Below, in pieces: positions 38,222 through 53,635 of a stretch of 64,000 bases of DNA (its first letter is position 1; the number at the start of each line of letters is the position of its first letter). The notes beneath the pieces were generated by a model. That model was not told where the DNA came from. It searched no databases and saw only the letters and a list, made by a program, of their open reading frames with translations. The translations under genes were made by a program, and so were the position numbers. Source of the DNA: Albimonas pacifica. Lineage in GTDB: Bacteria; Pseudomonadota; Alphaproteobacteria; Rhodobacterales; Rhodobacteraceae. The stretch is taken from assembly GCF_900113695.1 (NCBI RefSeq), contig NZ_FOQH01000011.1:62001-126000 (forward strand). Direction: 5' to 3'.

Positions 38222-38503
38222 GCGCCTGTTCTCCGGAGCCGTCCGTCGCGGATGCCGCAGGAGCGGCTCGCCCGGCCCCGTCAAGGATCGCGCAGCGACC
38301 CCCGAAGGGGGCTTGTCCTTGACGGGGCCGGGCGAGCCGCTCAGGCATCGGACGCGATGGACGGCGCCGGAGAACAGGCGCGGGCCTTGTTCTTTGGCGA
38401 GTCAGGAGCCCGCCGGAGGCTCCCCCCTCTCCGGTCCCTGCAAGCCCCGCCCCCGGCGCCCCGCAGCCAGGCCCGCCCGCAGGGCGCCTGTCGATCGCCG
38501 GCC
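38222..38503 (-). repeat. dispersed palindromic element, copy A (inverted)
   Basis: A 160-base palindrome spans 38222-38381; outer arms GCGCCTGTTCTCCGG match perfectly, and arms of about 65 bases pair with a few small bulges. The centre (38288-38315) is an inner hairpin with a CCCCGAAGGGG tip. Right of it come a GGAGCC/GGCTCC hairpin (38406-38424) and the module GCCCGCCCGCAGGGCGCCTGT (about 38470-38491). The order of modules is the reverse of copies B and C, so A lies in the opposite orientation. It sits between trpA and the PNPOx-like gene. Confidence 0.9.
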
Positions 38504-38578
38504 TCCCGGACGGTTGCCCGTTCCCGTCCCCCGGCCTAGCCTCGCCCCGGTCCGCCCCTTTCCGGCACGGAGCCCTTC

Positions 38579-39130
38579 ATGGCCACCCAGTACGACCGCA
38601 TCGAGCCCCCGCTCGCCCGTTTCATCGCCCGCCAGAACATCTTCTTCACCGCCACCGCGACCGGCGACAGCCGCATCAACCTCTCCCCCCGCTCCACCGA
38701 CGCATTGCGGGTGCTGGACGACAACCGGGTCTGCTACCTGGACCTGACCGGCTCGGGCTCCGAGACCTCGGCCCACCTGCTCGCCGACGGGCGCATGACC
38801 ATCATGCTCTGCAGCTTCCAGGGTCCGCCGATGATCCTGCGCCTCTACGGCCGCGCCCGCTCGCTGTTCCACGGCACGCCCGAATACGCCGAGCGCCTGG
38901 CCGCCTCCTACGACGGCGAGGCCCCGCTGGGCGCCCGCCAGATCGTCGAGCTGACCGCCGACCTGGTGCAGACCTCCTGCGGCTACGCCGTGCCGCTGTT
39001 CTCCCACGAGGGCGAGCGCGACGTGCTGACCCGCTGGGCGATGGGCAAGGGCGCCGAGGGCCTCGTCGCCTACCGCGCCGAGAAGAACGCCGTCTCCCTC
39101 GACGGTCTTCCGACGGGCATGCCGGCCTGA
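38579..39130 (+). CDS. pyridoxamine 5'-phosphate oxidase family protein
   Basis: A 183-residue split-barrel flavin-type protein. [17 protein letters not shown] near residues 22-38 and [17 protein letters not shown] near 51-67 match the PNPOx-like family of FMN- or F420-associated oxidoreductases; substrate unknown. It is monocistronic, downstream of repeat copy A. Confidence 0.88.
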
Positions 39131-39273
39131 GCGGGGCGGCGCAGGCGCCCGCACGCCGGGGCCCGCCCGCGCGGCGCGGTCCCGGCCCGGGGCGCCCCCC
39201 CTCGCGCCGGGCGGTCCGGCCCCCTATGTTGAGCGAAACCTTAAGGACGCCGAAGCGAAGCGGAGGCTGCGCG

Positions 39274-40278
39274 ATGATCCCCTATTCCCTGCTGGACCTC
39301 TCGCCGATCTGCGAGGGCGGAACCGCCGCCGACAGCTTCCGCGCCAGCGCGGCGCTGGCGCAGGCGGCGGAGCGGGCGGGCTACAGCCGCTACTGGCTCG
39401 CCGAGCATCACAACATGCCGGGCATCGCCTCGGCCGCGACCTCGATCCTGATCTCCCATGTGGCCTCGAAGACCTCGACGATCCGGGTGGGCTCGGGCGG
39501 CATCATGCTGCCCAACCACTCGCCGCTGGTGATCGCCGAGCAGTTCGGGACGCTGGCGACGCTGCACGGGGACCGCATCGACCTCGGGCTCGGGCGGGCG
39601 CCGGGGACGGACATGCCGACCGCGCGGGCCCTGCGCCGCGGCATGGACGGGGTCGACCGCTTCCCCCAGGACGTGCTGGAGCTGATGGACTATCTCGGCG
39701 AGCCGGAGCCCGGCGTGCACGTGCGCGCGATCCCGGGCACGGGGACGAAGGTGCCGGTGTGGATCCTGGGCAGTTCGCTCTACGGCGCGCAGCTCGCGGC
39801 GCATCTGGGCCTGCCCTACGCCTTCGCCTCGCATTTCGCGCCGCAGCTGGTGTTCGAGGCGGCCCAGGTCTACCGCGACGCCTTCCGCGACACCGGCCGG
39901 CTGCCGGCGCCGCATTTCATGCTGGCCGCCAACGTCTTCGCCGCGGACACCGAGGCCGAGGCGCGCCGGCTGCGCACGTCCTCCCAGATCACCATGGCGC
40001 GGCTGCGCACCGGCAACCCCGGCAAGCTGCCTGCGCCCGTGGACCGGATCGAGGACGTGCTTTCCCCCGCCCAGATCGCGATGGTCGACGAGATCCAGTC
40101 GGTCAGCGTGATCGGCGACCCGGGGCAGGTGCGCGACGGGCTCGCCGACCTGATCCGCCGCCACCGCCCGGACGAGCTGATCCTGGCCGGCCACATCCAC
40201 GACCCCGCCGCGCGCATCCGCAGCTTCGAGATCGCCGCCGACGCGATGCGGGCGATGGCCGCCGCCCCGGCCGCCTGA
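39274..40278 (+). CDS. luciferase-like (LLM class) flavin oxidoreductase
   Basis: A 334-residue member of the bacterial luciferase-like family, YhbW/MsnO8 subgroup: [10 protein letters not shown] start, [15 protein letters not shown] near residue 42, [13 protein letters not shown] near 77 and the [10 protein letters not shown] loop near 108. It would use FMNH2 for a monooxygenase reaction; substrate unknown. Start chosen at MIPYSL with GGAGG nine bases before, not at the upstream ATG. Confidence 0.92.
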
Positions 40279-40740
40279 GGGCCTTTCCGAGGTCGCCGCC
40301 CCGCCCGTCGCGCAGACGGCCGGTCGGGGCGGCCCTCGCGTCGGCTGCGCCTCCGCATCGCCCCGCCCGACCGTCCCCGTCGCGGGACGCCGTCGCGGGG
40401 CGGCCTCCTCCGGACGACGGCGCGCGCCGGGCCTGCCCCCCGCCGTCGCGACCCGCTTGATGGCGGGAGGGCCCGGGCCACGGCGCCGGCGCCGCGGCGT
40501 AGGCGGCGATGGCGCGTCCCCGCGCCTGCCCGCCCCGAAGCCGAAGCGCCCGTGCGGAGGGCGCCCCAGGTCCGCCGGCGCGCTCGCGCCGAGGCCGTCT
40601 CACGCCCGGTCCGGCCGCCGGGCCCCGCGAGGGGGACGGCCGGGCGGGGCGATGCGGGCGCGCAGCGCACGCGAGGGCCGCCCGAGCCGGCTCGTGCGCC
40701 CCTCCTTGCCAGGCGCGCCCGGCGAGGCTATCGCCCCCCC
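40279..40740. other. GC-rich intergenic region before tsaD
   Basis: About 460 bases without a supportable gene, promoter or strong terminator. Frames remain open on several strands from composition only. Confidence 0.4.
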
Positions 40741-41853
40741 ATGCGCACCCACCTGACCCTGCTGGGCCTCGAGTCCTCCTGCGACGAGACCGCCGCCGCC
40801 GTCGTCCGCGCCCCCCTGCGCGACGGCCTGCCGGAGGGCCCGGGCGAGATCCTCTCCTCCGTGGTCATGGACCAGGCGAGCCTGCACGCGGCCTACGGCG
40901 GCGTGGTGCCCGAGATCGCCGCCCGCGCCCATGCCGAGCGGCTCGACATCGCCGTCGAGCAGGCGCTGGAGGCGGCGGGGACGCCGCTGCAGGCGCTGGA
41001 TGCGGTGGCGGCGACGGCGGGGCCCGGGCTGATCGGGGGCGTGCTCTCGGGCGTGATGTGCGCCAAGGGGATCGCGTTGGGGGCGGGGCTGCCCTTCGTG
41101 GGGGTCAACCACCTGGCCGGCCACGCGCTGACGCCGCGGCTGACCGAGGGGCTGGCCTATCCCTACCTGATGCTGCTGGTCTCGGGCGGGCACTGCCAGA
41201 TCCTGGCGGTGCTGGGGCCCGACCGGTTCCGGCGGCTGGGCGGCTCGATCGACGACGCGCCGGGCGAGGCCTTCGACAAGGTCGCGAAGCTGCTGGGGCT
41301 GGGCTATCCCGGCGGGCCGGAGGTGGAGCGGGAGGCGCAGGGCGGCGACCCGGGCCGCTTCGACCTGCCCCGGCCGCTGATGGACCGGCCCGGCTGCGAC
41401 ATGAGCTTCTCGGGGCTCAAGACCGCTCTGCGCCGGGCCCGCGACCGGCTGGTGGAGGCGCAGGGCGGGATCACCCGCCAGGACCGCGCCGACCTCTGCG
41501 CCGGGTTCCAGGCGGCGGCGGCCGACGTGCTGGCGCAGAAGACCGCCCGCGCGCTGCGCGCCTTCGCCCCCGAGGCCGGCCCCGCCCCCGCCATCGCCGT
41601 CGCCGGCGGCGTGGCGGCCAACACCCGGCTGCGCGGCGCGCTGGAGGCGGCGGCAGAGGCCGAGGGCTGGCGGCTGGTCGCGCCGCCCCTGCGGCTCTGC
41701 ACCGACAACGCGGCGATGATCGCCTGGGCGGGGGCGGAGAAGCTGGCGCGCGAGGGGGCCGATGCGCTCGACCTGCCGGCGCGCCCGCGCTGGCCGCTGG
41801 ACGCGGGCGCGGCGCCGCTGATCGGGTCGGGGAAGCGGGGCGCGAAGGCCTGA
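40741..41853 (+). CDS. tsaD: tRNA N6-threonylcarbamoyladenosine transferase
   Basis: A 370-residue ASKHA-fold protein that completes t6A37 on t[15 protein letters not shown] at residues 9-20, the metal ligands His124 and His128 in [17 protein letters not shown] near 140 and the [10 protein letters not shown] near 290 are all present. In many alphaproteobacteria tsaD is beside hemC; here the two are 37 kb apart. Repeat copy B follows directly. Confidence 0.97.
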
Positions 41854-41883
41854 GGGCGGCGCGGCGGGGCTTGCTCCTGGGGG

Positions 41884-42195
41884 AGCGGTCTACAGGCGCC
41901 CTGCGGGCGGGCCTGGCTGGGGCGCGCTGCTGGCGAAGGGCTCTCGAAGACTGCGCAGGGGGAGCCTCCGGCGGGCTCCTGACTCACCCAAGAACAAGCC
42001 CCGCGCCTGTTCTCCGCAGCCGTCTCTCGCTGATGGATGCCTGAGCGACTCGGCCCCCGGGGTCAAGGACAAGCCCGGCTTCGCCGGGTCGCTGCGCGAT
42101 CCTTGACCCTGGGGGCCGAGTCGCTCCGTTCGGCATCCGCGAGTGACGGCTCCGGAGAACAGGCGCTTTGCGAGGCCTGGCAGGCGTCGCGCCGG
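41884..42195 (+). repeat. dispersed palindromic element, copy B
   Basis: In order: module 1 (ACAGGCGCCCTGCGGGCGGG, 41892-41911), a variable spacer, the GGAGCC/GGCTCC hairpin (41961-41979) with the GACTCACCCAAGAACAAG tail, then the 164-base palindrome 42003-42166. Its arms (42003-42069 and its partner ending 42166) pair almost throughout; the centre CAAGCCCGGCTTCGCCGGG forms an inner hairpin. A tail GCTTTGCGAGGCCTGG is shared with copy C. It lies between the convergent tsaD and mcd genes. Confidence 0.92.
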
Positions 42196-42326
42196 GGCGC
42201 CTGGGGCGAGCCTGGCGCGGGGCTGCGCTTCTTGGGTCGGAGGGGCGAGACGGGAACGCCCCGGGGCCGGGGGGCGCCGGGGCGTTCGGGGTCGGTCGGA
42301 GGCGGCCCCGGGGGGGCCGCCGGGGG

Positions 42327-44015
42327 TCAGTTGACGCCGTCGAGGAGGCGGCGGGCGATGACCTGGGCCTGGATCTCGGCGGCGCCCTCGAAGATGTTGA
42401 GGATCCGCGCGTCGCAGAGCACGCGGGAGATCGGGTATTCCAGCGCGAAACCGTTGCCGCCGTGGATCTGCACGCCGTTGTCGGCGCAGGCCCAGGCGAC
42501 GCGGGCGCCCAGCAGCTTGGCCATGCCGGCCTCGAGGTCGCAGCGGCGGCCCTCGTCCTTCTCGCGCGCCGAGTGGTAGGAGAGCTGGCGGGCGACCATG
42601 ATCTCGACCGCCATCAGGGCCAGCTTGTCGTAGACGCGCGGGAACTCGACGATCGAGCGGCCGAACTGCTTGCGGTCCTCGGCGTATTTCAGCGCGATCT
42701 CCATGGCGCACTGGGCCACGCCCACGGCGCGGGCGGCGGTCTGGATGCGCGCGCCCTCGAAGGTCTTCATCAGCTGCTTGAAGCCCTGGCCCTCGGCCCC
42801 GCCCAGCAGGTTCTCGCCCTTCACCACGAAGCCGTCGAAGCCGAGCTCGTATTCCTTCATGCCGCGGTAGCCGAGCACCTCGATCTCGCCGCCGGTCATG
42901 CCCTCGGCCGGGAACGGGTTCGCGTCGTCGCCGCGGGGCTTCTCGGCGAGGAACATCGACAGGCCCGAGTAGTTCGAGGTGTCGGGGTCGGTGCGCGCCA
43001 GCAGGGTCATCACGTCGGCGCGGGCGGCGTGGGTGATCCAGGTCTTGTTGCCGGTGATCTTCCAGTCGTCGCCGTCCTTCACCGCGCGGGTGCGCAGCGA
43101 GCCCAGGTCCGAGCCGGTGTTGGGCTCGGTGAACACGGCCGTCGGCAGGATCTCGGCCGAGGCGATGGCGGGGAGCCACTTGTCCTTCTGCGCCTGGGTG
43201 CCGCCGTTGAGGATCAGCTCCGCCGCGATCTCGGAGCGGGTGCCGAGGCTGCCCACGCCGATGTAGCCGCGAGAGAGCTCCTCGGAGACCACGCACATCG
43301 CGGTCTTGCCGAGGCCGGAGCCGCCGTATTCCTCGGGCACCGTCAGGCCGAAGACGCCCATCTCGCCCATCTCCTGCACCAGCGGCATGGGGATGAACTC
43401 GTCCTTGAGGTGCCACTCGTGGGCGTAGGGCACGACCTTCTCGTCCGCGAAGCGGCGGAACTGGTCGCGGATCATCTCGAAATCCTCGTCGAGCCCGCAG
43501 TCGCCGTAGGTCGGGGCGCCGGCGCGCTCGCGCATGATCTCCACCAGGCGGTGGCGCGCGGCGTCGGTGTTGCCCGTGGCGATCAGGGTCGAGACGGCCT
43601 TGTCCGACGCCAGCGCCAGACCCTCGGCGGCGAGACCGAGGTCGGCGAGGCGCGCGAACTCGTTCTGGCTCATCATGATGCCGCCGGTCAGCTGGGCGAG
43701 GTACTCGCCGAAGCCGATCTGAAGGATCAGCTGCTCGATCTCGCCGAACTTGCCGGCCTCGGCCAGGCGCACGGACCAGGCCTGCATCTGGCGCAGCGAC
43801 TCGGTGTAGGTCGCGATCCAGCTCAGCGCATGGGCGGCGTGCTGCTCGCGGTCCATCAGCGCGCCCGAGACCTTGCCGTCGACCGTCACCCGCTCCCGCA
43901 GGGCGCGGCGGGCGGACATCTCGATCTCCTCGACCGCCGGCATGGCGGCGGCGCAAAGCGCTGCGAGATCGGCGAGAATCGGCTCAGGGGTCTGGATCGC
44001 GGTCGCTTCGTTCAT
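42327..44015 (-). CDS. mcd: acyl-CoA dehydrogenase, likely methylsuccinyl-CoA dehydrogenase
   Basis: A 562-residue acyl-CoA dehydrogenase with a 170-residue helical N-terminal extension, then the standard three-domain fold: LTVPEEYGGSGLGKT near 228, TEPNTGSDLGSLRTRAV near 305, and IHGGNGFALEYPISR near residue 527. The long N-terminal extension distinguishes methylsuccinyl-CoA dehydrogenase of the ethylmalonyl-CoA pathway, which Rhodobacterales use in place of the glyoxylate shunt to assimilate C2 units. The assignment is by length and resemblance to the Rhodobacter enzyme; other pathway genes are not in the window. Confidence 0.82.
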   Translation of the reverse strand: MNEATAIQTPEPILADLAALCAAAMPAVEEIEMSARRALRERVTVDGKVSGALMDREQHAAHALSWIATYTESLRQMQAWSVRLAEAGKFGEIEQLILQIGFGEYLAQLTGGIMMSQNEFARLADLGLAAEGLALASDKAVSTLIATGNTDAARHRLVEIMRERAGAPTYGDCGLDEDFEMIRDQFRRFADEKVVPYAHEWHLKDEFIPMPLVQEMGEMGVFGLTVPEEYGGSGLGKTAMCVVSEELSRGYIGVGSLGTRSEIAAELILNGGTQAQKDKWLPAIASAEILPTAVFTEPNTGSDLGSLRTRAVKDGDDWKITGNKTWITHAARADVMTLLARTDPDTSNYSGLSMFLAEKPRGDDANPFPAEGMTGGEIEVLGYRGMKEYELGFDGFVVKGENLLGGAEGQGFKQLMKTFEGARIQTAARAVGVAQCAMEIALKYAEDRKQFGRSIVEFPRVYDKLALMAVEIMVARQLSYHSAREKDEGRRCDLEAGMAKLLGARVAWACADNGVQIHGGNGFALEYPISRVLCDARILNIFEGAAEIQAQVIARRLLDGVN

Positions 44016-44306
44016 CGATGGAACCTCTCCGGTCGGCGGGTCGGCGGGGGAGCAGGCTCCCCGGCCGGCCGCGAGGCGCGCGCAGGCCGTGCTGCATCGC
44101 GGAATCTGTCATGTTTCAGGCGCGGACGCTAGTCAGGCCCCGGCGCAGGGTCAATATCGGCGCAAGATCGTTGCGCCCGGACAGGGGGTCGCAGGCGATA
44201 TCTTGCGCAGCTCCTGACCGGCGGCAGGCGGGCGCGGACGCGCGTTTCTCCTGATACGCGTCCCGGCGGCGCTCGGACCACCTGTCGCCGGGCCGCGGGC
44301 GGTGCT

Positions 44307-45098
44307 ATGGGCGCCGTCATGGACTTTGCAGGATTGATCGCGGACCACGGGTGGGTCGCGCTGGCGGCGGCGCTGCTGGGGATGCTCGCGGCGGGTTTCG
44401 CCAAGGGCGTGGTCGGATTCGCGCTGCCGATGATCGCGATCTCCTCGATCGGCTCGGTGCTGCCGGCGCCGCTGGCGGTGGCGGCGATCATCCTGCCGGC
44501 GGTGATCACCAACATCTGGCAGACCTTCCGCCAGGGCCTGCACGCGGCCTGGGCGAGCCTGCGCCGCTTCTGGCTCCTGAACCTGGTGATGTTCGCGGCC
44601 ATCGCGGTCACCGCGCAGCTGATCCTGGTGATCCCCGAGCAGGCGCTGTTCGGCATCCTGGGCGTGGGCGTCTGCGGCTTCGCGGGCATCCAGCTTTTCG
44701 GCTGGCGGCCGCAGGCCCCGCCGAAGCGCTGGATGAAGCCGGTCGAGGCCGCGGTCGCGCTGGTGGCGGGGTTCTTCGGGGGGCTCTCGGGCGTCTGGGG
44801 GCCGCCGATCCTGCTGTATCTCACCGCGCTGGAGCTGCCCAAGACCGACATGGTGCGCGCGCAGGGGGTCAGCTTCCTGCTCGGCTCGCTGATCCTGGTG
44901 ATCTCGCACCTGCGCTCGGGGCTGCTGCTGGGCGAGGGGGGCGCGATCTCGGTCGCGATGGTCGTGCCGGCGATGGCGGGCATGGCGCTGGGACTGGCGG
45001 TGCAGGACCGGCTCGATCAGCAGAAGTTCCGCCGCGCAACGCTGATCGTGCTGGTGGTCGCGGGCCTGAACCTGCTGCGCCGGGCGCTGGCCGGCTGA
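44307..45098 (+). CDS. TauE/SafE family sulfite-type exporter
   Basis: A 263-residue membrane protein with about eight helices and the duplicated TauE/SafE pattern (GFAKGVVGFALPMIAI near 30 and FFGGLSGVWGPPIL near 155). Members export sulfite, sulfoacetate or other organic anions; the substrate is not evident. Start at 44307 or 44319; neither has a clear ribosome binding site. It is transcribed divergently from mcd. Confidence 0.88.
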   Translation: MGAVMDFAGLIADHGWVALAAALLGMLAAGFAKGVVGFALPMIAISSIGSVLPAPLAVAAIILPAVITNIWQTFRQGLHAAWASLRRFWLLNLVMFAAIAVTAQLILVIPEQALFGILGVGVCGFAGIQLFGWRPQAPPKRWMKPVEAAVALVAGFFGGLSGVWGPPILLYLTALELPKTDMVRAQGVSFLLGSLILVISHLRSGLLLGEGGAISVAMVVPAMAGMALGLAVQDRLDQQKFRRATLIVLVVAGLNLLRRALAG

Positions 45099-45152
45099 CC
45101 GCGCGAACGCCGGGGCCCCGGGCGGGCGGGGAGGCCCCGGGACGCGGAGGGC

Positions 45153-45902
45153 TCAGCCGAACAGGAAGTCGGCCTCGGTCAGCTCGGCCGGGCTGACGTG
45201 GCGCAGCGTGATGGTGGCGCCGCCGTCGATCGTCACCTCGGCATGGTCGCCGACGCTGCGGATCTCGAGGTCGTCGAAGTCCAGCGTCCCGCGCGAGGAG
45301 ATGCGGATCTGGTCGCGCCCGTTCTGGAAGTCGCGGATCACGTCGTCGCCCGCGCCCCGCCAGAACACGAACACGTCCTCGCCCTGGCCGCCGCGCAGCT
45401 TGTCGTCGCCCAGCCCGCCGTTCAGCCGGTCGTCGCCATGGCCGCCGTTCAGCGCGTCGCCGCCCTTGCCGCCCTGGAGCACGTCGTCGCCCGCGCCGCC
45501 CAGCAGCCCGTCGCGCCCGCGCCCGGCCTTGAGCAGGTCGTCGCCGCGGAAGCCGTTGAGCGTGTCGCTCTCGCGCGAGCCCAGCAGCCGGTCGTCGTCG
45601 TTGAGGATCAGGCGGAAGAACTTGCGGCTGTCGCCCTCGGCCTGCAGGGCGAGGAAGGGCGGGCGCACGGTGCGCGCGAAATCGATCATCACGAAGTGCT
45701 GGACGCCCTCGGCCTGCACCGAGACGGCGCGCAGCGTGCCCGAGGGCTCCCAGCCGTAGGGGTGCCAGATGGCGCCGTAGTAGGTGATGTTGTCGTCTTC
45801 GCCGCCGAAGCGGACCGCCTCGTTGCTGAAGAAGGTCCGGTCGTCGTGGCGGACGTCGTAACGGTTCATGTCCAGCGCATGATACGCGCGCAAGATCGCC
45901 AT
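45153..45902 (-). CDS. RTX-repeat calcium-binding protein
   Basis: A 249-residue protein with no signal peptide. Residues 1-120 are an unrecognised beta-rich domain. Residues about 125-200 hold repeated GGxGDDxLxGG nonapeptides that bind calcium in a beta-roll, followed by DVFVFW...DVIRDFQNGRDQIRIS, the usual end cap, and a C-terminal EADFLFG as type I secretion signal. The start at 45902 follows AGAGGGA. It is the second RTX protein in the window after the serralysin; again no exporter is adjacent. Confidence 0.87.
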   Translation of the reverse strand: MAILRAYHALDMNRYDVRHDDRTFFSNEAVRFGGEDDNITYYGAIWHPYGWEPSGTLRAVSVQAEGVQHFVMIDFARTVRPPFLALQAEGDSRKFFRLILNDDDRLLGSRESDTLNGFRGDDLLKAGRGRDGLLGGAGDDVLQGGKGGDALNGGHGDDRLNGGLGDDKLRGGQGEDVFVFWRGAGDDVIRDFQNGRDQIRISSRGTLDFDDLEIRSVGDHAEVTIDGGATITLRHVSPAELTEADFLFG

Positions 45903-46061
45903 CGGCGTGTCCCTCTTCGAAATCCCGGGCGGCCCTGGGCGTCTGTCGCGCCATGCGTGCGGGGCCAAGGGGTTGCGCGGTCATGTGAAGATGACTGCGC
46001 AGCCCGGCTCAACCCCGCGCGCGCAGGCGCGCTCGGGTTTGCGCGAGGTGTGGGCGCGGCG

Positions 46062-47057
46062 CTACGCCGGACGCGCCCGGGCGCCGGGGACCGGCAGCGG
46101 CGCGCGCGCCGCGACGCTCCCGCCCCCGCCGAGCCGCGGGGCGAGGGCCGCGGCCACCGCCTGCTCGGCAGGGGTCGGCGCATGGCCGGGGAGCAGCGCG
46201 GCGAGGCGCGGGTCCGCCAGCCGGTGGGGCGTGGTCCACAGGTAGCGCATCTCCAGCAGCTCGCGCCCCATCGGCCAGACCGGCGCGGCCAGGCGCAGGG
46301 CCCACCAGGGGAACGCCCGCAGGCGCAGCGGCCGGCCGGCGGCCTTCGCGGTCAGCGCCATCAGCTCCGCCCCCGTCAGCGCGTGGCCGGGGTGGTTGAA
46401 GGCGGCGAAGGCCGGCAGCGCGTCGCGCAGCCCGGCGAGACCGGCCGCGACCGCGGCGAAGTCGGGCAGGAACGACCAGGCGTGCAGCCGGTCGAGGGGC
46501 CCGGGATAGGTGAAGCGGCCCTGCGCCAGCCCCGCGGTCATGTGGGCGTCGTACCAGTTGCCCGCGATCTCGGTGTCGAGGAAGTCGCCGCCCCGCAGGA
46601 CGATGCAGCGGATCTCGCCGGCCTCGGCCGCGGCGCGGAGCGTCATCTCCTGCTGGGCGCGCAGGCGGCCCTTGCGGGTGTCGGGGCGGTAGGGCGTATC
46701 GGGCGGGGTCGGCAAGGCGATCGCCGTGCCGTAGCCGTAGACGTTGCCCGGGTGCAGGAGGGTCGCCCCGCTCGCCCGCGCCGCGGCGAGCAGCGCCCGC
46801 GTGGTCTTCGGCAGCGCCTTGGGCCAGTCGGGATAGGGGGCGTTGAGCGCGTTGACGATCACGTCCGCGCCCTCCGCCGCCCGGGAGAGCTGGTCGGGAT
46901 CGAGGGCGTCGCCGCGCACCGGCTCGACGTTCTCGAAACCGGGGGCGCCGGAGCGGGACATCGCCCGCACGGTCCAGCCGGCCTCGGCGAAGGCGGCGGC
47001 GGCGTGGCGGCCGAAGCGGCCGCGGGCGCCGGCGATCAGGACGCATCCGGGGGTCAT
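46062..47057 (-). CDS. NAD(P)-dependent epimerase/dehydratase-like protein
   Basis: A 331-residue extended-SDR fold protein: nucleotide loop VLIAGARGRFGRHAA near residue 6, a VIVNALNAPYP segment near 66, and the PGNVYGYG segment near residue 102, with Tyr where SDR enzymes place the active Tyr. Substrate unknown. It is divergent from a LysR regulator 88 bases away, which suggests that the regulator controls it. Confidence 0.85.
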   Translation of the reverse strand: MTPGCVLIAGARGRFGRHAAAAFAEAGWTVRAMSRSGAPGFENVEPVRGDALDPDQLSRAAEGADVIVNALNAPYPDWPKALPKTTRALLAAARASGATLLHPGNVYGYGTAIALPTPPDTPYRPDTRKGRLRAQQEMTLRAAAEAGEIRCIVLRGGDFLDTEIAGNWYDAHMTAGLAQGRFTYPGPLDRLHAWSFLPDFAAVAAGLAGLRDALPAFAAFNHPGHALTGAELMALTAKAAGRPLRLRAFPWWALRLAAPVWPMGRELLEMRYLWTTPHRLADPRLAALLPGHAPTPAEQAVAAALAPRLGGGGSVAARAPLPVPGARARPA

Positions 47058-47145
47058 GGCGGGTCTCCTGCTGTGGTGCTGGGGGAAATCTGGGGTATTC
47101 TCCGCCGAAGCGGTAGCCGCGCGATTGGATGGGAGCCATTCAGCG

Positions 47146-48102
47146 ATGGATGATCTGGACTGGGCGGAGCTGCAGGCCCTGCTGGCGGTGGCGCGGGCGG
47201 GCTCGCTCTCGGCCGCGGCGCGGGCGGGGGGGCTGAGCCAGCCCACCCTGTCGCGCCGGCTGGCGGCGCTGGAGGGCCGGCTGGGCGAGCGGCTGATGGA
47301 GCGCGGCGCCGGCGGCGTGCGCCTGACCGACGCGGGCCGCGAGGCGCTGGCCCGCGCCGAGGAGATGGAGGCGGCCGCCCACCGCCTGTCGCGCGCCGCC
47401 GCGGGACGGGCGCGCGGCGTCTCGGGCGTGGTGCGGGTGACCGCAAGCCGGGTGGTCGCGACCTACCTTCTGCCGGGCCCGCTCGCCGAGCTGCTGGAGG
47501 CGGAGCCGGCGCTGGAGATCGAGCTCGTGGCCTCCGACGCCAGCGCCAACCTGCTGCGGCGGGAGGCGGACATCGCGGTGCGCATGTATCGCCCCGCCCA
47601 GGCCGACCTGGTGACGCGCAAGGTCTCGGAGATGGCGCTGGGGCTCTTCGCCTCGCCCGCCTATCTCGCGCGGCACGGCGCGCCCCGGACGGTGGCCGAC
47701 CTCGCCGCGCACCGGGTGGTGGGCTTCGACCGCTCGGACCTGATCGTCGAGGGGTTCGCCAAGGCCGGCTTCCCCCTGCCCCGCCGCTTCTTCCGCCTGC
47801 GCACCGACGACCAGGTGGCCTATTGGGAGGCGGTGGCGGCCGGCGCCGGGATCGGGGCCGGGCAGAAGCCCGTCGCCGCGCGCGATCCGCGCGTGACGCC
47901 GGTGCTGCCGGAGGCCGAGCTCGGCGCCCTGCCGGTGTGGCTGACGGCCCATGCGGACCTGAGGGGCTCGGCGCGGGTGCGGCGGGTCTTCGATCACCTG
48001 GCCGAAAGCCTGCCCCGGCTGGCGCGCGGAGGGGCGGCGGAGCCCTCCCCGGGACCGCTTGCGCGGAGCGTCGCGGTCGCAGGCGCGCCCGATCGGCGCT
48101 GA
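47146..48102 (+). CDS. LysR-family transcriptional regulator
   Basis: A 318-residue regulator: N-terminal winged helix (LQALLAVARAGSLSAAARA at 9-27, then LSQPTLSRRLAALE) and a substrate-binding domain from about 90. Start ATG at 47146 with GGGAG upstream. The short divergent gap to the epimerase gene is where it would bind; a CCGC-CGAA-GCGG repeat is visible there (47103-47114). Confidence 0.9.
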   Translation: MDDLDWAELQALLAVARAGSLSAAARAGGLSQPTLSRRLAALEGRLGERLMERGAGGVRLTDAGREALARAEEMEAAAHRLSRAAAGRARGVSGVVRVTASRVVATYLLPGPLAELLEAEPALEIELVASDASANLLRREADIAVRMYRPAQADLVTRKVSEMALGLFASPAYLARHGAPRTVADLAAHRVVGFDRSDLIVEGFAKAGFPLPRRFFRLRTDDQVAYWEAVAAGAGIGAGQKPVAARDPRVTPVLPEAELGALPVWLTAHADLRGSARVRRVFDHLAESLPRLARGGAAEPSPGPLARSVAVAGAPDRR

Positions 48103-48117
48103 TTTCGCGCCCGCGTC

Positions 48118-48145
48118 TTGTCCCGGGCGGCGCGGAGGGTAAAAT
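48118..48145 (+). promoter_or_regulatory. gcrA promoter
   Basis: TTGTCC at 48118-48123 and TAAAAT at 48140-48145 with a 16-base spacer, standing out in GC-rich DNA. Transcription would begin near 48152, leaving a leader of about 125 bases. Confidence 0.65.
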
Positions 48146-48275
48146 AGGGGCCGAGAGACGCGACGGGCCGCGACGGCCCGGACGGGCGCGGCCGGAAGGT
48201 CGGCTTCGCCCCTGACCGCGGACCGGCGCCCTGGCCTCCAGGACGCGGGGACGCGCGAAAACCATGGAGAACGTC

Positions 48276-48932
48276 ATGTCCTGGACCGACGAGCGGGTCG
48301 AGCTGCTCAAGTCCATGTGGGGCGAGGGCAAGAGCGCCAGCCAGATCGCCAAGGCGCTGGGCGGCGTGACCCGCAACGCCGTGATCGGCAAGGTCCACCG
48401 CCTGGGCCTGTCGAACCGCACCGCCGCCCCGAAGACCGGCGAGGAGAAGGAGGCGGCCCCCGCGCCCGCCGCCGCCGCGCCCGCGCCGCAGCCGCGCCCG
48501 GCCCCCGCGCCGGAGCCCGCCCCGCGCCCGGCCGCCGCCGCGCCCGAGCCGGAGCCCGCGCCGCGCCCGGCCGCGCCGCAGCCGGCCCCCGCCGCGCCGC
48601 GCGCCGCCGCCCCGGCGCCCGAGGAGCCCGTCGAGCGTCCCGCCCCCCGGGCGGTCTCGCCGATGCCGCCCAACGGGCCGCAGCCGCCGCAGGTCACGGA
48701 GGTCTCCGAGGAGGCCCGCCGCAACCTCGAGGAGGTGGAGAAGAAGGCCAAGCGCCTGAACCTGCTGCAGCTGACCGAGCGCACCTGCAAGTGGCCGATC
48801 GGCGATCCGGCGACGGACGACTTCTTCTTCTGCGGCCTGCCCTCGCTGGGCGGCAAGCCCTATTGCGAGGCCCATGTCCAGGTGGCCTTCCAGCCGATGA
48901 GCGCGCGGCGCGACCGCTCCCGCTCCCGCTGA
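48276..48932 (+). CDS. gcrA: GcrA cell cycle regulator
   Basis: A 218-residue GcrA protein. The conserved N-terminal DNA-binding part MSWTDERVELLKSMWGEGKS through VIGKVHRLGLSNR (residues 1-48) and the C-terminal sigma70-binding part with TCKWPIGDP and FCGLPSLGGKPYCEAH (about 170-205) are intact. Between them is a long Pro/Ala/Glu linker. GcrA works with sigma70 at CcrM-methylated GANTC promoters. Start at 48276, with GGAGA before it; another in-frame ATG lies 12 bases upstream. Confidence 0.95.
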   Translation: MSWTDERVELLKSMWGEGKSASQIAKALGGVTRNAVIGKVHRLGLSNRTAAPKTGEEKEAAPAPAAAAPAPQPRPAPAPEPAPRPAAAAPEPEPAPRPAAPQPAPAAPRAAAPAPEEPVERPAPRAVSPMPPNGPQPPQVTEVSEEARRNLEEVEKKAKRLNLLQLTERTCKWPIGDPATDDFFFCGLPSLGGKPYCEAHVQVAFQPMSARRDRSRSR

Positions 48933-48940
48933 GCGGACCT

Positions 48941-48965
48941 GCGGAGAGGCCCCCGGCCTCTCCGC
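48941..48965 (+). terminator. gcrA terminator
   Basis: GCGGAGAGGCC at 48941-48951 and GGCCTCTCCGC at 48955-48965 form a perfect 11-bp stem with a CCC loop, directly after the stop; only C-rich sequence follows, with no T tract. Confidence 0.65.
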
Positions 48966-49325
48966 CCCCCTCTCGCCTGCCGGCCCGCGCCGCCGCGGCC
49001 CCCTCCCCTCCCCCGGACGCCCCGCGCCCGGCCCCTCCCCCCGGAGGCGCCGCGTCGACGGCTGCGCCCGGTCCCGCGGGTCCGCGCGCGGCGCGCGGCG
49101 GACGCCGCGCCCTGCGCGACGGCCGCGGGCGGGAGACGGAGGGGCCGGGCGCCCCGCCCGCCCCGCGCCGCGGGCGGGGCGCCGGGACCCGCGCGACGCC
49201 GGCCGCGGCGCCTCCGCCGCGCGCGTCGGGCGCGGCGGGGCGGGACGGCGCGCCCCCGCCCGCCGGCAGGCGCCGCGGGGCGGGCCGTGCGGCGCGGCGT
49301 GCCGGTCAGGTCTCGGGAACCGAGG
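48966..49325. other. GC-rich intergenic region between gcrA and phoU
   Basis: No gene supported. Contains one GGCGCCGCGTCGAC motif (49046-49059) and many short GC palindromes; the two flanking genes converge here. Confidence 0.4.
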
Positions 49326-50081
49326 TCAGGGCTCGGGGGAGACGTCGATCTCCGTGCCGCGCAGCATCCACCAGGTGGCGGCGGCGACGTGGCGGGCCTG
49401 GTCGCCGATCCGCTCCAGGTCCTTGGCGATGAACAGGCGCCGGGCGCCGGGGACCACCTGGTCGGCGCCCTCGGCCATGCGCGCCAGCAGCGAGCGGGTC
49501 AGGGACTCGTAATGCGCGTCCAGCTCCCCGTCGCGCCGCCAGACCGCCCGGGCGGCCTCGGCGTCGCGGGCCTGGTGGGCGGAGATCGCCGAGGCGAGCT
49601 GCGCCAGCGCCCGCTGGCCGAAGCGGCGCAGGGCGGCGTCCATGTCCTCGCCCGGCGCAGGAGCGGGCGCGGCGGGGGCGGGCGCCTCCTCGCGCAGGCG
49701 GGCCGCGCCCTCGGCGAGATTGGCCGACAGGTCCCCGCTGCGCGCCAGCGCCGCCAGCGCCCGCAGCGCCGCCAGCAGCTGGCGCAGGTCCCCGCCCATC
49801 GGCTGGCGCAGCGCGACCAGCGAGGCGGCCCGGTCGTTGGCCTCGCGCGCCAGCAGCCGCTGGCGGTCGCGCAGCGCGCGCACCTCCGCCGCCTCCGCCG
49901 CCCCGCCGCGCAGCAGCAGCGAGAGCGCGGCCGAGAGCAGCTCCTCGGCCATGCCGCCCACCCGCGCGGTCTGCGCCGCGACCTGGCGCAGGTCGTCGTC
50001 GAAGGAGCTGACCGTATGGCGGCGCCCGGGCGCCTCCGCCTGCGGGCGGTCGGGCCGCAGGGGGTCGGGGTGCTGAAACAT
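49326..50081 (-). CDS. phoU: PhoU-like phosphate signalling protein
   Basis: A 251-residue helical protein of the PhoU family, with two repeats: the first around residues 28-110 (FDDDLRQVAAQTARVGGMAEELLSAA start), the second around 150-245 with the signature AKDLERIGDQARHVAAAT. PhoU links phosphate transporters to PhoR. phoR lies upstream on the same strand, 148 bases away; no pst genes or phoB are present. An Ala/Pro-rich linker joins the repeats. Confidence 0.85.
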   Translation of the reverse strand: MFQHPDPLRPDRPQAEAPGRRHTVSSFDDDLRQVAAQTARVGGMAEELLSAALSLLLRGGAAEAAEVRALRDRQRLLAREANDRAASLVALRQPMGGDLRQLLAALRALAALARSGDLSANLAEGAARLREEAPAPAAPAPAPGEDMDAALRRFGQRALAQLASAISAHQARDAEAARAVWRRDGELDAHYESLTRSLLARMAEGADQVVPGARRLFIAKDLERIGDQARHVAAATWWMLRGTEIDVSPEP

Positions 50082-50127
50082 GAGATCCGGCGAAAACGCT
50101 GACGTGCGGTCACGTTACAGGCGATGC

Positions 50128-50145
50128 ATGACATGCGTATGTCGC
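50128..50145 (-). promoter_or_regulatory. possible Pho box upstream of phoU
   Basis: On the minus strand GCGACAT and ATGTCAT lie 11 bases apart, as two half sites of a Pho box (consensus CTGTCAT, 4-base spacer). The second matches 6 of 7, the first poorly. It lies in a local AT-richer patch 47 bases before the start codon. Confidence 0.3.
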
Positions 50146-50229
50146 CGCCCGGTGGAACGCGCCGGGATCGGAGGATTTTTCACGCGGTCGCGATCCGTCG
50201 CGCCGGCGGGCCGCCGCCGGCCCGCCCCG

Positions 50230-51540
50230 TCAGCGCGCCTGCGCCCGGGCCGCCGCCCCGCCGCTTGCCGGCTCGCGCCCCGGCTCGCTGGCCGCGCCGG
50301 GCTCGGCCGGCAGCCACAGGGTGAAGGCCGCGCCCTCGCCGGGCGCGCTCTCCACGCTCAGCTCGCCGCGGTGGCGCGACATGATGTGCTTGACGATGGC
50401 GAGCCCCAGCCCCGTGCCCCCCTGGTTGCGCGAGCGGCGGACGGAGACGCGGTAGAAGCGCTCGGTCAGCCGCGGCAGGTGCTCGCGCGGGATGCCCTCG
50501 CCATGGTCGCGCACGGTCAGGCCGATCATGCCGGGATGGCTGGGCGAGGCGGGGGCGGGCAGGATCTCGACCGGGCCCTCGCCGTATTTCATCGCGTTTT
50601 CCATCAGGTTGCCGATCGCCTGGATCAGCTGGTCGCGATCCCCGCGCACCATCGGGCCGTGGGCGGGGGCGAGCAGGCGGATCTCCACCCCCCGCTCGGC
50701 GGCGACGGGGGCCAGCGCCTCGGCCGTCTCGTGGGCGATCTCGCCCAGGTCCTGGCGCTCGGTCGGGGCCACGTGCTCGTTGAGCTCGATGCGGTTGAGC
50801 GACAGCAGGTCGTCGACCAGCCGCTGCATGCGCCCCGCCTGGGCCTGCATGATGCCCAGGAACCGCTCCTGCGCCTCGGGGTCGTCGCGGGCGGGGCCCT
50901 GCAGGGTCTCGATGAAGCCGCGGATCGAGGCGAGCGGCGTGCGCAGCTCGTGGCTGGCGTTGGCGATGAAGTCGGTGCGCATCCGCTCCAGCCGCAGGTC
51001 CTGGGTGCGCTCGGTGAACAGGCACAGCACGTGGCGGCGACGGGGGCGGCCGGGGGCGTCGGCGCGCGAGGCGCCGTCGACATGGGCCCGGATCACCCGG
51101 TTGCGGTCGCCGTGGAGCGTGAAGTCGAAGCTGCGCGGCGGCCCGCCCGCCTGCGCCTCGGCCAGCGCGTCGAGGAAGTCGGGCGCGCGGAACGACATCG
51201 AGTGGTGCTCGCCGACCCTCAGCCGCTCGAACAGCTCGCGGGCGGCGGGGTTGGCGTATTCGATCAGGCCGGCGGGATCGATCAGCAGCAGCGGGAACGG
51301 CAGCCGGTCGAGCGCGGCGCGCCCCAGCCCGGGCTCGAGCCCCGGCAGGCGCGGCGCGGGCGGGGCGGCGGCGCCGCCGGCGTCGGGGATGCGCAGGGCG
51401 AAGGCGAAGAGCGCCGCGCCGAACAGTCCCGCCGCCGCCTGCCCCCAGAACGGCGCGCCCAGCGCCCCCGCGGCCGCCGCCCCGGAGAGCGAGGCGACGG
51501 CGACGGCGATTCGGCGGGCGGTCTCGCCGCGGAGGGGCAT
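50230..51540 (-). CDS. phoR: PhoR-like sensor histidine kinase
   Basis: A 436-residue kinase with two N-terminal membrane helices (10-48), a PAS domain (about 75-180), the HisKA phosphorylation box NASHELRTPL with His197, and an HATPase domain with NLMENAMKYGEG and GTGLGLAIVKHI. This is the PhoR layout. No response regulator is adjacent, so pairing with PhoB is inferred only from phoU nearby. Confidence 0.88.
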   Translation of the reverse strand: MPLRGETARRIAVAVASLSGAAAAGALGAPFWGQAAAGLFGAALFAFALRIPDAGGAAAPPAPRLPGLEPGLGRAALDRLPFPLLLIDPAGLIEYANPAARELFERLRVGEHHSMSFRAPDFLDALAEAQAGGPPRSFDFTLHGDRNRVIRAHVDGASRADAPGRPRRRHVLCLFTERTQDLRLERMRTDFIANASHELRTPLASIRGFIETLQGPARDDPEAQERFLGIMQAQAGRMQRLVDDLLSLNRIELNEHVAPTERQDLGEIAHETAEALAPVAAERGVEIRLLAPAHGPMVRGDRDQLIQAIGNLMENAMKYGEGPVEILPAPASPSHPGMIGLTVRDHGEGIPREHLPRLTERFYRVSVRRSRNQGGTGLGLAIVKHIMSRHRGELSVESAPGEGAAFTLWLPAEPGAASEPGREPASGGAAARAQAR

Positions 51541-51817
51541 CGGCGTCCTTTCGGCGGGGCGCGTGGGGCGCGCCGCGCATCGGCGGCCCTGGGGGGCCGC
51601 GGGGGTCGTGCGGGCCCGCGCGCGATGGTCGTGCGGGCCCGCGCGGGCAGGTCCGCGCGGGGCGGCGGTTTCCGGGCGCGCGAAGCGGCCGGGAGGTCAC
51701 GCCCCGATACCATGCGTCGCGGGCGGGGCGAAGGAGGTTTGCCTTCATCGCTCCGTCACATATTTACACCGCGACGGGCCCGAGCGACGGTCCGCCCGAC
51801 CTCCGGGATTGCGAGCC

Positions 51818-52261
51818 ATGATCCGCTACACCCTGCGCTGCGCCGATGGGCACGAGTTCGAGAGCTGGTTCCAGTCGGCCGAGGCCTTCGACAAGGTCAG
51901 GGCCGCGGGCGGGCTGGCCTGCGTGATGTGCGGCTCCGACCAGGTGACCAAGTCGCTGATGGCCCCCGCGCTCGGAGCCGGCACGAAGAAGGGCGCGCCG
52001 GAGCCGGCGGCCGAGACCGCGCCGATGCTCTCCGCGCCCGACAGCCCGCTCGAGGCCGCCATGAAGGCGCTGCGCCAGCGGGTCGAGGCCTCGGCCGAGA
52101 ACGTGGGCCGCGACTTCGCGGCCATGGCCCGCCGGATGCACGAGGGCGAGGTCGAGGACCGGCCGATCTACGGAGAGGCCACCCGCGAGGAGGCCCGCAG
52201 CCTGATCGAGGACGGCGTCCCCGTCGCGCCCCTGCCCTGGCGCTCGGGCAAGGACAACTGA
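51818..52261 (+). CDS. DUF1178 family protein
   Basis: A 147-residue protein matching DUF1178: N-terminal MIRYTLRCADGHEFESWFQ with a CxxC-like zinc site (Cys8 and the CVMCGS near 36), a variable acidic middle, then RPIYGEATREEARSLIEDGVPVAPLPW near the end. Function unknown; common in alphaproteobacteria. It is monocistronic. Confidence 0.92.
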   Translation: MIRYTLRCADGHEFESWFQSAEAFDKVRAAGGLACVMCGSDQVTKSLMAPALGAGTKKGAPEPAAETAPMLSAPDSPLEAAMKALRQRVEASAENVGRDFAAMARRMHEGEVEDRPIYGEATREEARSLIEDGVPVAPLPWRSGKDN

Positions 52262-52442
52262 GCCCGCCGGCCTGCGCCGGGACGTCGCCCCCTCCCCCTG
52301 ACGGAACTCCCGCCGCGCGCGCCCCGGCCCTGCGGCGCGCTGCGTCGATCCCGCCCGGGCCCCGCCCGCGCTCGGCGGTGGACAAGCGCCCGCGGCCGTC
52401 GAAGAGTTCCGCCTCGGGAAAACCGCAAGGGAGGAGGCGGCG

Positions 52443-53183
52443 ATGCATGTCCTGATCACCGGGGGATCGAGGGGGATCGGCGCGGCCACGGCGCGGCTCT
52501 GCGCGGCGCGCGGCTGGGACGTGAGCGTGAACTACGTCGCCAACGCCGAGGCCGCCGCGGCGGTCGTGGCCGAGGTCGAGGCCGCCGGCGCCCGCGCGGT
52601 CGCCCTGCAGGCCGACATGGGCGAGATCGACGCGGCCGAGACCCTGTTCGACGCCGCCGAGGCCGCCCTCGGGCCGGTGACGGGCTTCGTCAACAACGCC
52701 GGCATCGTGGCGAAGGCCTCGATGCTGGCGGACATGGAGCCGGCGCGGGTGAAGCGGATGATCGACGTCAACGTGACCGGCGCGATCCTGGCGCTGCGCG
52801 CGGCGGCGCGGCGGATGCCCACGGACCGCGGCGGCCCGGGCGGGGCGATCGTCAACATCTCCTCCGCCGCCGCCCGGCTGGGCTCGCCCGCGACCTACGT
52901 CGACTACGCGGCCTCGAAGGGGGCGATCGACACGCTGACGCTGGGCATGGCGCAGGAGCTCGCCAAGGGCGGCGTGCGGGTGAACTGCGTGCGCCCCGGG
53001 ATCGTGGAGACCGACATCCACCTCGACAGCCACGGCTTCGACCGCGCCGCCCAGGCGGGACCGAGCCTGCCGATGGGCCGCGCCGGGCGCGCCAACGAGA
53101 TCGCCGAGGCCATCGTCTGGCTCCTCTCCGACGCGGCCTCCTACACCTCCGGCGCGCTGCTGGACGTGGCGGGGGCGCGCTGA
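52443..53183 (+). CDS. short-chain dehydrogenase/reductase
   Basis: A 246-residue classical SDR: TGGSRGIG cofactor loop at residues 6-13, NNAGI near 84, Ser near 141 (ISSAAAR), and the YxxxK pair in YVDYAASKGA near 155. The N-V-N-Y after strand 2 suggests NADP. Substrate unknown; resembles 3-oxoacyl-ACP reductase-like sugar or fatty acid reductases. GGGAGGAGG precedes the ATG. Confidence 0.92.
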   Translation: MHVLITGGSRGIGAATARLCAARGWDVSVNYVANAEAAAAVVAEVEAAGARAVALQADMGEIDAAETLFDAAEAALGPVTGFVNNAGIVAKASMLADMEPARVKRMIDVNVTGAILALRAAARRMPTDRGGPGGAIVNISSAAARLGSPATYVDYAASKGAIDTLTLGMAQELAKGGVRVNCVRPGIVETDIHLDSHGFDRAAQAGPSLPMGRAGRANEIAEAIVWLLSDAASYTSGALLDVAGAR

Positions 53184-53280
53184 GGGGCCGCCTCGCGGCC
53201 CGACGGGCGCATCGCGTCTGCTACGCCGGCGATGGGCCTGACGGTCGGGAGGCGCCCGCGGCCTCCGCGGCCCGTGCGTC

Positions 53281-53635
53281 CCAGCCAAGCCCGCCCGCAG
53301 GGCGCCTGCAGACCGCTTGTCGGAGGAGCGGTCTACAGGCGCCCTGCGGGCGGGCTCGGCTCGGAAGCTCCAAGAGGAGGCGGAGCGCGGAACCGCCGGT
53401 GGGGAGCCTCCGGCGGGCTCCTGACTCACCCAAGAACAAGCCCGCGCCTGATCTCCGCAGCCGTCTCTCGCCGATGGATGCCTGAGCGACTCGGCCCCCG
53501 GGGTCAAGGACAAGCCCGGCTTCGCCGGGTCGCTGCGCGATCCTTGACCCCGGGGGCCGAGTCGCTCCGTTCGGCATCCGCGAGAGACGGCTCCGGAGAA
53601 CAGGCGCTTTGCGAGGCCTGGCCGACGTCGCGCCA
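53281..53635 (+). repeat. dispersed palindromic element, copy C
   Basis: Like copy B in orientation. It begins with an inverted pair of module 1 (53281-53316 and 53328-53361), then a spacer, the GGAGCC/GGCTCC hairpin (53403-53421), and the 164-base palindrome 53444-53607 whose sequence is nearly that of copy B, including the centre. The tail GCTTTGCGAGGCCTGG follows. It lies between the convergent SDR and hsp20 genes. Confidence 0.92.

What the first reader, a model, noticed from the sequence alone, without database searches (positions are those of the whole stretch)
38222..53635. Dispersed intergenic element with a ~160-nt palindrome conserved by compensatory change
Three copies (38222-38503 inverted, 41884-42195, 53281-53635). 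Each has a long palindrome with outer arms GCGCCTGTTCTCCG, arms of about 65 bases, and an inner hairpin with a TTCG-type tip. Copy A differs from B and C across the middle arms (AGCGGCTCGCCCGGCCCCG in A, AGCGACTCGGCCCCCGGGG in B/C). Both arms changed together, so pairing is kept; the inner stem likewise changes from CCCCC/GGGGG to CCCGGC/GCCGGG. That is the signature of selection for structure, in RNA or as a cruciform. All copies lie between genes, two between convergent genes. A second hairpin (GGAGCC/GGCTCC) and a third module accompany it. No transposase is nearby. It could be a MITE-like or REP-like family, an attenuating hairpin, or a DNA-binding-protein site.
Basis: seen in the sequence. 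Interest (0 to 1): 0.78.

Follow-up and report, generated by a model that had tools for sequence, protein, structure and literature searches.

The report
Palindromic repeats that overwrite one another
A bacterium carries well over a hundred copies of a DNA element that can fold into a long hairpin between genes; copies stay at their places while their sequence keeps being replaced, with both halves of the hairpin changing together.

Summary
The three copies are real and belong to a large family. The genome (Albimonas genus, 6.02 Mb) holds 142 copies by a strict pattern; a profile finds 74 in 2.06 Mb, about 216 if even. Each has a ~164-bp palindrome capped by a three-way junction, mostly with a small hairpin and a third module beside it. 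In Albimonas sp. CAU 1670 copies sit at the same sites in the same orientation (26 of 30, biased sample), yet orthologous palindromes are no more alike than non-orthologous ones (0.831 vs 0.829, p=0.33) while flanks keep the orthology signal: concerted evolution. In the variable stem 126 of 225 base pairs changed between orthologous sites, 114 on both sides, 103 of these transversions, although third codon positions differ by 19.5%. Blocks are replaced, so co-variation alone does not prove selection for structure. Mismatch asymmetry and loop types mark one strand as the folded one. The capped core, with unrelated complementary arms, also occurs in other Rhodobacteraceae, Streptomyces and Holophagae. 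No Rfam match; no RAYT-type transposase domain. Best reading: a REP/RIME-like palindrome, new variant of a known kind.

The parts
38222..38381 (-). Copy A: long palindrome with three-way-junction cap (element orientation minus)
38405..38423 (-). Copy A: second hairpin, module M2 (GGAGCC/GGCTCC)
38471..38490 (-). Copy A: third module M1 (CAGGCGCCCTGCGGGCGGGC)
41893..41912 (+). Copy B: module M1
41961..41979 (+). Copy B: module M2 hairpin
42003..42166 (+). Copy B: long palindrome with three-way-junction cap
42063..42106 (+). Copy B: conserved core TCAAGGACAAGCC-hairpin1-GGTCGC-hairpin2-GCGATCCTTGA, shared with other genera and phyla
53289..53308 (-). Copy C: extra inverted copy of module M1 facing the first
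   Evidence: I16
53336..53355 (+). Copy C: module M1
53403..53421 (+). Copy C: module M2 hairpin
53444..53607 (+). Copy C: long palindrome with three-way-junction cap

Best explanation
It is a high-copy, non-coding, apparently non-autonomous intergenic palindrome of the REP/BIME/RIME sort, amplified in Albimonas in the past and now largely fixed in place. Shown: copies keep sites and orientation between two species, while the palindrome carries no orthology signal overall and its paired arms have changed together in blocks. Inferred: copies overwrite one another by gene conversion, perhaps because the hairpin is cut or stalls replication and is repaired from another copy, with arm-templated correction keeping the arms matched. 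Also inferred: it is tolerated or kept at the ends of transcription units because the hairpin is harmless or useful there (3'-end protection or termination) and is lost from divergent promoter spaces.
For: Copy number: 142 by pattern, 0 on the reversed-pattern control; 74 in 2.06 Mb, 71 of 74 with a complete palindrome. Same sites: of 30 G000 copies with both flanks found in the G001 DNA at hand, 26 have a copy there, 26 of 26 in the same orientation; in G001 C12:1-400000 alone 5 of 7. Concerted evolution: orthologous 0.831 vs non-orthologous 0.829 (25 pairs, p=0.33), within G000 0.851, within G001 0.873; flanks 200-300 nt upstream and 40-120 nt downstream p=0.0002 each, palindrome 0.33, M2 0.91 (10 pairs), spacer 0.86 (10 pairs), the first 40 nt downstream 0.06. 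Block replacement: e stem 126 of 225 pairs changed, 114 on both sides, 103 of 114 transversions, with 98% (G000) and 95% (G001) of e-stem pairs intact; 30 stem types in 71 G000 copies, 28 in 73 G001 copies, 6 shared; third-position identity 80.5% over 47 genes. Context: convergent 29 of 74 vs 40 of 253 element-free gaps of at least 300 nt (p=4e-5), divergent 6 of 74 vs 66 of 253 (p=7e-4).
Against: No conversion event was observed; loss and re-insertion at a preferred site, or a trans-acting factor driving parallel change, could look similar. The excess of within-species over between-species likeness is small (0.85-0.87 vs 0.83) and was not tested for significance, and the e stem stays diverse within each species (0.585, 0.628). 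The outermost arms keep a weak orthology signal (0.932 vs 0.921, p=0.008). No run of four or more T follows the palindrome in the 19 copies shown in element orientation, and in tandem gene pairs the element lies either way (19:20), so a strand-specific mRNA role is not supported. The A.C over G.T excess does not follow gene or fork direction. By the session's own gene finder 20 of 74 copies overlap a predicted gene by more than 30 nt. 26 of 30 is biased upward: the 8-kb G001 loci were fetched for containing a match, and C12 was chosen because part of it is syntenic with a four-copy stretch.
Confidence: 0.55

Rival explanations
1. A structured RNA (terminator, mRNA 3'-end stabiliser or independently transcribed small RNA) whose base pairing is kept by selection; double changes are compensatory evolution.
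For: A two-hairpin element lies between the same two genes in five Rhodobacteraceae genomes.
Against: The asymmetry is alike whichever strand neighbouring genes read (22:5 vs 29:2); no T run; 103 of 114 double changes in the e stem are transversions and their number outpaces third codon positions; between the two bet-like genes the other strand is the sense strand.
Confidence: 0.2
2. A MITE still moved by an unidentified transposase; same-site copies reflect re-insertion into preferred sites.
For: High copy number, modules at the ends, orientation bias with a replication proxy, sporadic spread of the core across alphaproteobacterial families, Streptomyces and Holophagae; Streptomyces hits come as pairs 6.3-8.0 kb apart in 4 of 5 positive genomes.
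Against: 26 of 26 shared sites keep orientation; Y1 transposase family PF01797 in 0 of 3 Albimonas-genus genomes while 5 of 14 control genomes ring, but no other transposase family was searched; no target duplication could be read at the four sites aligned; ten ORFs of L187 gave Pfam matches for one only, helix-turn-helix.
Confidence: 0.12
3. A chromosome-organising or replication-linked DNA site: a cruciform or hairpin bound by a nucleoid or repair protein.
For: Orientation follows the GGGCAGGG strand (52:22 in G000, 51:16 in G001 with 9 undetermined); about one copy per 28 kb; a conserved cap on arms of differing sequence.
Against: The core model matches only 10 of 120 family genomes and 6 of 367 class genomes, the window's own included in both, so no general housekeeping role; these searches used strict filters and are lower bounds.
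Confidence: 0.12

Closest known systems
REP elements / BIMEs with RAYT transposases (GTAG- and CGTC-tagged REPs, PMC3733652; start of abstract in a listing, and passages)
   Same: High-copy intergenic palindromes; that REPs form mosaics of more than 100 copies is in the listed abstract of PMC2817692. Evolution of REPs by gene conversion was asked in the title of Higgins 1988, seen only in a reference list.
   Different: 160-167-bp palindrome instead of 20-40 bp, no GTAG or CGTC end tag, three-way-junction cap, no Y1 transposase domain in three genomes of the genus.
RIME1/RIME2, Rhizobium intergenic mosaic elements
   Same: Recalled: large palindromes in intergenic regions of Alphaproteobacteria.
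   Different: No comparison possible: the RIME papers are not held and no RIME sequence was at hand.
RU/ERIC-type small mobile sequences of enterobacteria (PMC2759123, start of abstract in a listing)
   Same: Intergenic repeat units of 103-168 bp in multiple copies; that RU-1 is ERIC and folds as one long palindrome is recalled.
   Different: Other hosts; sequences not compared. Exchanged stems at fixed sites are the points shown here.
Template-switch maintenance of hairpins (PMC8794818, abstract and start of introduction seen)
   Same: Explains multibase compensatory changes without selection for each step.
   Different: Described there for RNA genes, not for a dispersed intergenic repeat.
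HRC-8-4 motif of Rhodobacterales (PMC8632094, section 22 read)
   Same: A stem with a conserved tip, found in Rhodobacterales.
   Different: Described as terminator-like with a U run and tied to cco genes; its sequence was not compared.

Membership tests
REP (RAYT-mobilised) | High-copy intergenic palindromes | tested here: met
   (20 of 74 overlap a predicted gene by more than 30 nt, possibly gene-start errors)
REP (RAYT-mobilised) | Short unit (20-40 bp) tagged GTAG or CGTC at one end | tested here: not met
   71 palindromes of 160-167 nt with ends GCGCC...GGCGC
REP (RAYT-mobilised) | RAYT (Y1 transposase) gene in the genome | tested here: not met
   PF01797 in 0 of 3 genomes of the genus, 5 of 14 controls ring
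MITE | Target-site duplication and terminal inverted repeats | tested here: inconclusive
   CAGGCGCCC in M1 and GGGCGCCTG beyond the palindrome in several copies; alignments at four sites too noisy to show a duplication
MITE | Autonomous parent element with shared ends | not tested
   No transposase family other than PF01797 was searched
Intrinsic terminator | GC-rich hairpin followed by a T run | tested here: not met
   No run of four or more T right after the palindrome in the 19 copies shown in element orientation
Known Rfam RNA family | Match at gathering score | tested here: not met
   0 in the window and 0 in 20 outgroup loci; sub-threshold hits only around copy B
attC (integron) site | RYYYAAC at the end of the folded site | tested here: not met
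   Ends are GCGCC...GGCGC; consensus from a passage of PMC8632094
RIME1/RIME2 | Sequence similarity to the rhizobial elements | not testable with these tools
   Reference sequence and papers not held

The most novel reading that the evidence does not exclude
The element propagates and overwrites itself through a single-stranded intermediate of one defined strand, recognised by an unknown enzyme at the three-way-junction cap. Arms may have any sequence as long as they pair, which would explain the conserved cap on unrelated arms in three phyla, the strand-specific mismatch bias independent of gene and fork direction, the replication-linked orientation bias, and the block turnover of stems at fixed sites.
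Probability: 0.15. Interest if true: 0.87.

Novelty: new variant of a known kind. Interest (0 to 1): 0.62.

Why it matters
Covariation across copies is routinely read as proof of selection on RNA structure. Here is a natural case with over a hundred copies in each of two species where pairing is preserved while stems turn over more than third codon positions, mostly by double transversions, so the shares of gene conversion, template switching and selection could be separated. The capped core on unrelated arms in distant bacteria also points to a recognition site whose partner is unknown.

Tried and rejected
First gene finder gave implausible genes (1080 in 2.06 Mb) and was replaced. A first mapping for the e-stem comparison found only 3 of 25 pairs and was redone by copy identity. 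GC skew gave no clear replication direction; GGGCAGGG skew was strong; that this motif marks replication direction (KOPS) is recalled from E. coli and not tested here. The per-contig counts for the heterogeneity test were typed by hand; they cover part of the contigs and mix two counting methods.

Copies on viral contigs, plasmids or phages: none found with the pattern or with blastn. The Paracoccus hit L194 looks like coding DNA and was set aside; a match inside L063 was left out of the core alignment as a likely chance coding match; the third Streptomyces pattern hit (L265) was not examined; of the class-search hits, L325 (G844) was printed off-centre and not checked. Dropped before palindrome counts: 3 of 74 G000 copies and 3 of 76 G001 copies without a full palindrome. 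G001 copies were aligned at fixed length, so inserted tip bases were lost; stem columns are used for the mismatch counts. Besides A.C and G.T there were 80 (G000) and 107 (G001) other mismatches. Mismatch cells are not independent events, but the p-values treat them so. The figure of 216 copies is rough: contigs were taken by size, and some C24 stretches because they held hits. Ten literature searches listed no paper on this element; they cover only the held open-access library.
Full report
Observation. The three copies exist at the stated places. Each has a palindrome of 160-164 bp with 66-67-nt arms, a smaller hairpin (M2) on its left in element orientation and a further module (M1) beyond it; copy C has an extra inverted M1. 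Folding is far below shuffles (z -9.3 for A and -8.0 for B as RNA; -15.3 for B's palindrome as DNA). Copy A differs from B and C by blocks changed in both arms. Rfam has no match in the window at gathering level.

Family size. The window lies in a 6.02-Mb genome. G001, which the tool places in the same genus, is Albimonas sp. CAU 1670: of 18 G001 loci compared with CAU 1670 loci at a cut of 97% identity, the 8 alignments printed are all 100%. A strict core pattern gives 139 hits in the window's genome; a slightly looser one gives 142 in G000 and 137 in G001, with 0 on the reversed-pattern control. A profile from 31 aligned copies finds 74 in 2,061,863 bases, about 216 per genome if even; 71 of 74 have a complete palindrome. 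M1 lies inside the profile match in 64 of 74 (start positions).

Anatomy. The cap is a three-way junction: paired AAGGA/TCCTT, a short CRAG strand, hairpin 1 (GCC...GGT) and hairpin 2 (CGC...GCG). Around it lie a variable tip, a nine-pair stem (e) with 30 types in 71 copies, and more conserved outer parts. The arms of a layer are linked (e5-e3 and f5-f3 0.98, b5-b3 0.83, d5-d3 0.81, loop layer c 0.61). Between layers links are weaker: some are significant (b with c and e, e with the tip), others not (b with the tip and with column 99).

Place and orientation. By that finder 20 of 74 copies overlap a predicted gene by more than 30 nt, which may be start-site errors or real. In tandem pairs the element lies either way (19:20). 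Its orientation follows the strand rich in GGGCAGGG: 52:22 in G000 and 51:16 in G001 (9 of 76 undetermined), whereas genes of contigs C32, C36 and C37 do not (756:722).

Concerted evolution. Of 30 G000 copies with both flanks found in the available G001 DNA, 26 have a copy there, all in the same orientation; in the reverse direction 26 of 29 do. The sample is biased: the 8-kb G001 loci were fetched for containing a match, and contig C12 was chosen because part of it is syntenic with a G000 stretch holding four copies; within C12:1-400000 it is 5 of 7. Orthologous palindromes are as different as non-orthologous ones (0.831 vs 0.829, 25 pairs, permutation p 0.33), and copies within a species are somewhat more alike (0.851, 0.873; difference not tested). 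Sequence 200-300 nt upstream and 40-120 nt downstream of the palindrome keeps the orthology signal (p 0.0002 each); palindrome, M2 and spacer do not (0.33, 0.91, 0.86), and the first 40 nt downstream is borderline (0.06). Region by region, only the outermost arms keep a weak signal (0.932 vs 0.921, p 0.008). At one aligned site where G001 has a copy, G000 keeps only a fragment that bears the CTTCG arm form; that form is in 1 of 71 intact G000 copies and, subtracting from the joint count, in about 30 of 73 G001 copies, as expected if a dead fragment escaped homogenisation. This is a single case.

How the stems change. Between orthologous sites 126 of 225 e-stem pairs differ, 114 on both sides and 12 on one; 103 of the 114 are transversions; in the inventory over both species C-G and G-C are the common alternatives in this stem. 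Third codon positions of 47 genes differ at 19.5% of sites. Point mutation followed by compensation through G-U does not readily give this; replacement of blocks does, by conversion from other copies (53 of 71 copies share their e type with another, from the counts) or by arm-templated switching. Hence co-variation here is not by itself proof of selection, in line with PMC8794818.

Which strand folds. The bias is alike for copies read by genes on either strand (22:5, 29:2) and for either orientation to the replication proxy (157:15, 37:4). Read on the opposite strand these are G-T/G-U pairs; tip loops there are GNA triloops or CUUG/CCUG tetraloops in 66 of 71 copies and hairpin-2 loops GNA in 71 of 71, and this strand folds better as RNA in 61 of 71. 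That such loops are unusually stable is recalled and holds for DNA as well as RNA, so the data do not decide between an RNA and a single-stranded DNA.

Relatives. The core recurs, with arms of other sequence that are long and complementary in most cases, in Sulfitobacter, Shimia and other Rhodobacteraceae, in Streptomyces and in a Holophagae metagenome bin. Exact-pattern searches found the core in 1 of 398 phylum genomes, 2 of 295 family genomes and 2 of 133 class genomes (a third pattern), the window's own included. A covariance model R1 from 27 sequences matches 10 of 120 genomes of the family (1-8 hits outside the window's genome), 6 of 367 of the class and 5 of 41 of the genus of G702, the Streptomyces genome; in 4 of those 5 the hits are pairs 6.3-8.0 kb apart, inverted in G702 and direct in the other three. 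These searches used stricter filters and R1 was trained mainly on Albimonas, so they are lower bounds; not each hit was inspected. In five Rhodobacteraceae genomes (at least three genera by handle) the two-hairpin element lies between the same two genes (upstream proteins 67-85% identical; downstream proteins, read in four of the five, 71-75%), in the same orientation, the downstream start 14-24 nt beyond the 61-position core match in those four. The names betB and betA rest on recall of these sequences, not on a family search. None of 20 outgroup loci matches Rfam.

Mobility. The Y1 transposase family of RAYTs is absent from three genomes of the genus while 5 of 14 controls ring; other transposase families were not searched. 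No hit on viral contigs with the pattern, nor on plasmids or phages with blastn. Six flanking genes in the window are ordinary.

Verdict. A dispersed palindrome of the REP/RIME sort with unusual size, cap and dynamics, apparently overwritten among copies at fixed sites. The family, the fixed sites and the missing orthology signal are well supported; the conversion mechanism, the role at gene ends and the nature of the folded strand are inferred.

Noticed in passing
L187:299-355 and L187:6643-6703: Streptomyces sp. NRRL S-87 has two capped palindromes 6.3 kb apart in inverted orientation; three other genomes of its genus have direct pairs 6.5-8.0 kb apart. Ten ORFs of L187 gave Pfam matches for one only, helix-turn-helix.
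   Followed up: partly
L181, L210, L295, L298, L306: Five Rhodobacteraceae genomes carry a two-hairpin element between the same two genes (betB- and betA-like by recall), with diverged arms.
   Followed up: partly
L170:2552-2612 and L302: Two genomes carry the element just before similar reading frames beginning MTVYFIGAGPGDPELL and MTVFFVGAGPGDPELL (cobM-like by recall).
   Followed up: no
window 36778-36909: Array of 12-bp units: eight overlapping copies of a 48-nt reference spaced by 12 (D2).
   Followed up: no
window 9667-9918 and 45346-45597: 27-bp tandem repeats shared between two distant places of the window (D1).
   Followed up: no
window 40319-40399 and 40611-40691: Inverted repeat with 81-nt arms, 81% complementary, 211 nt apart, not part of the element (I3).
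   Followed up: no
G000 contigs C32, C36, C37 and C24 (window stretch): GGGCAGGG is strongly strand-biased (145:20, 164:4, 125:10, 2:32) while GC skew is weak.
   Followed up: no
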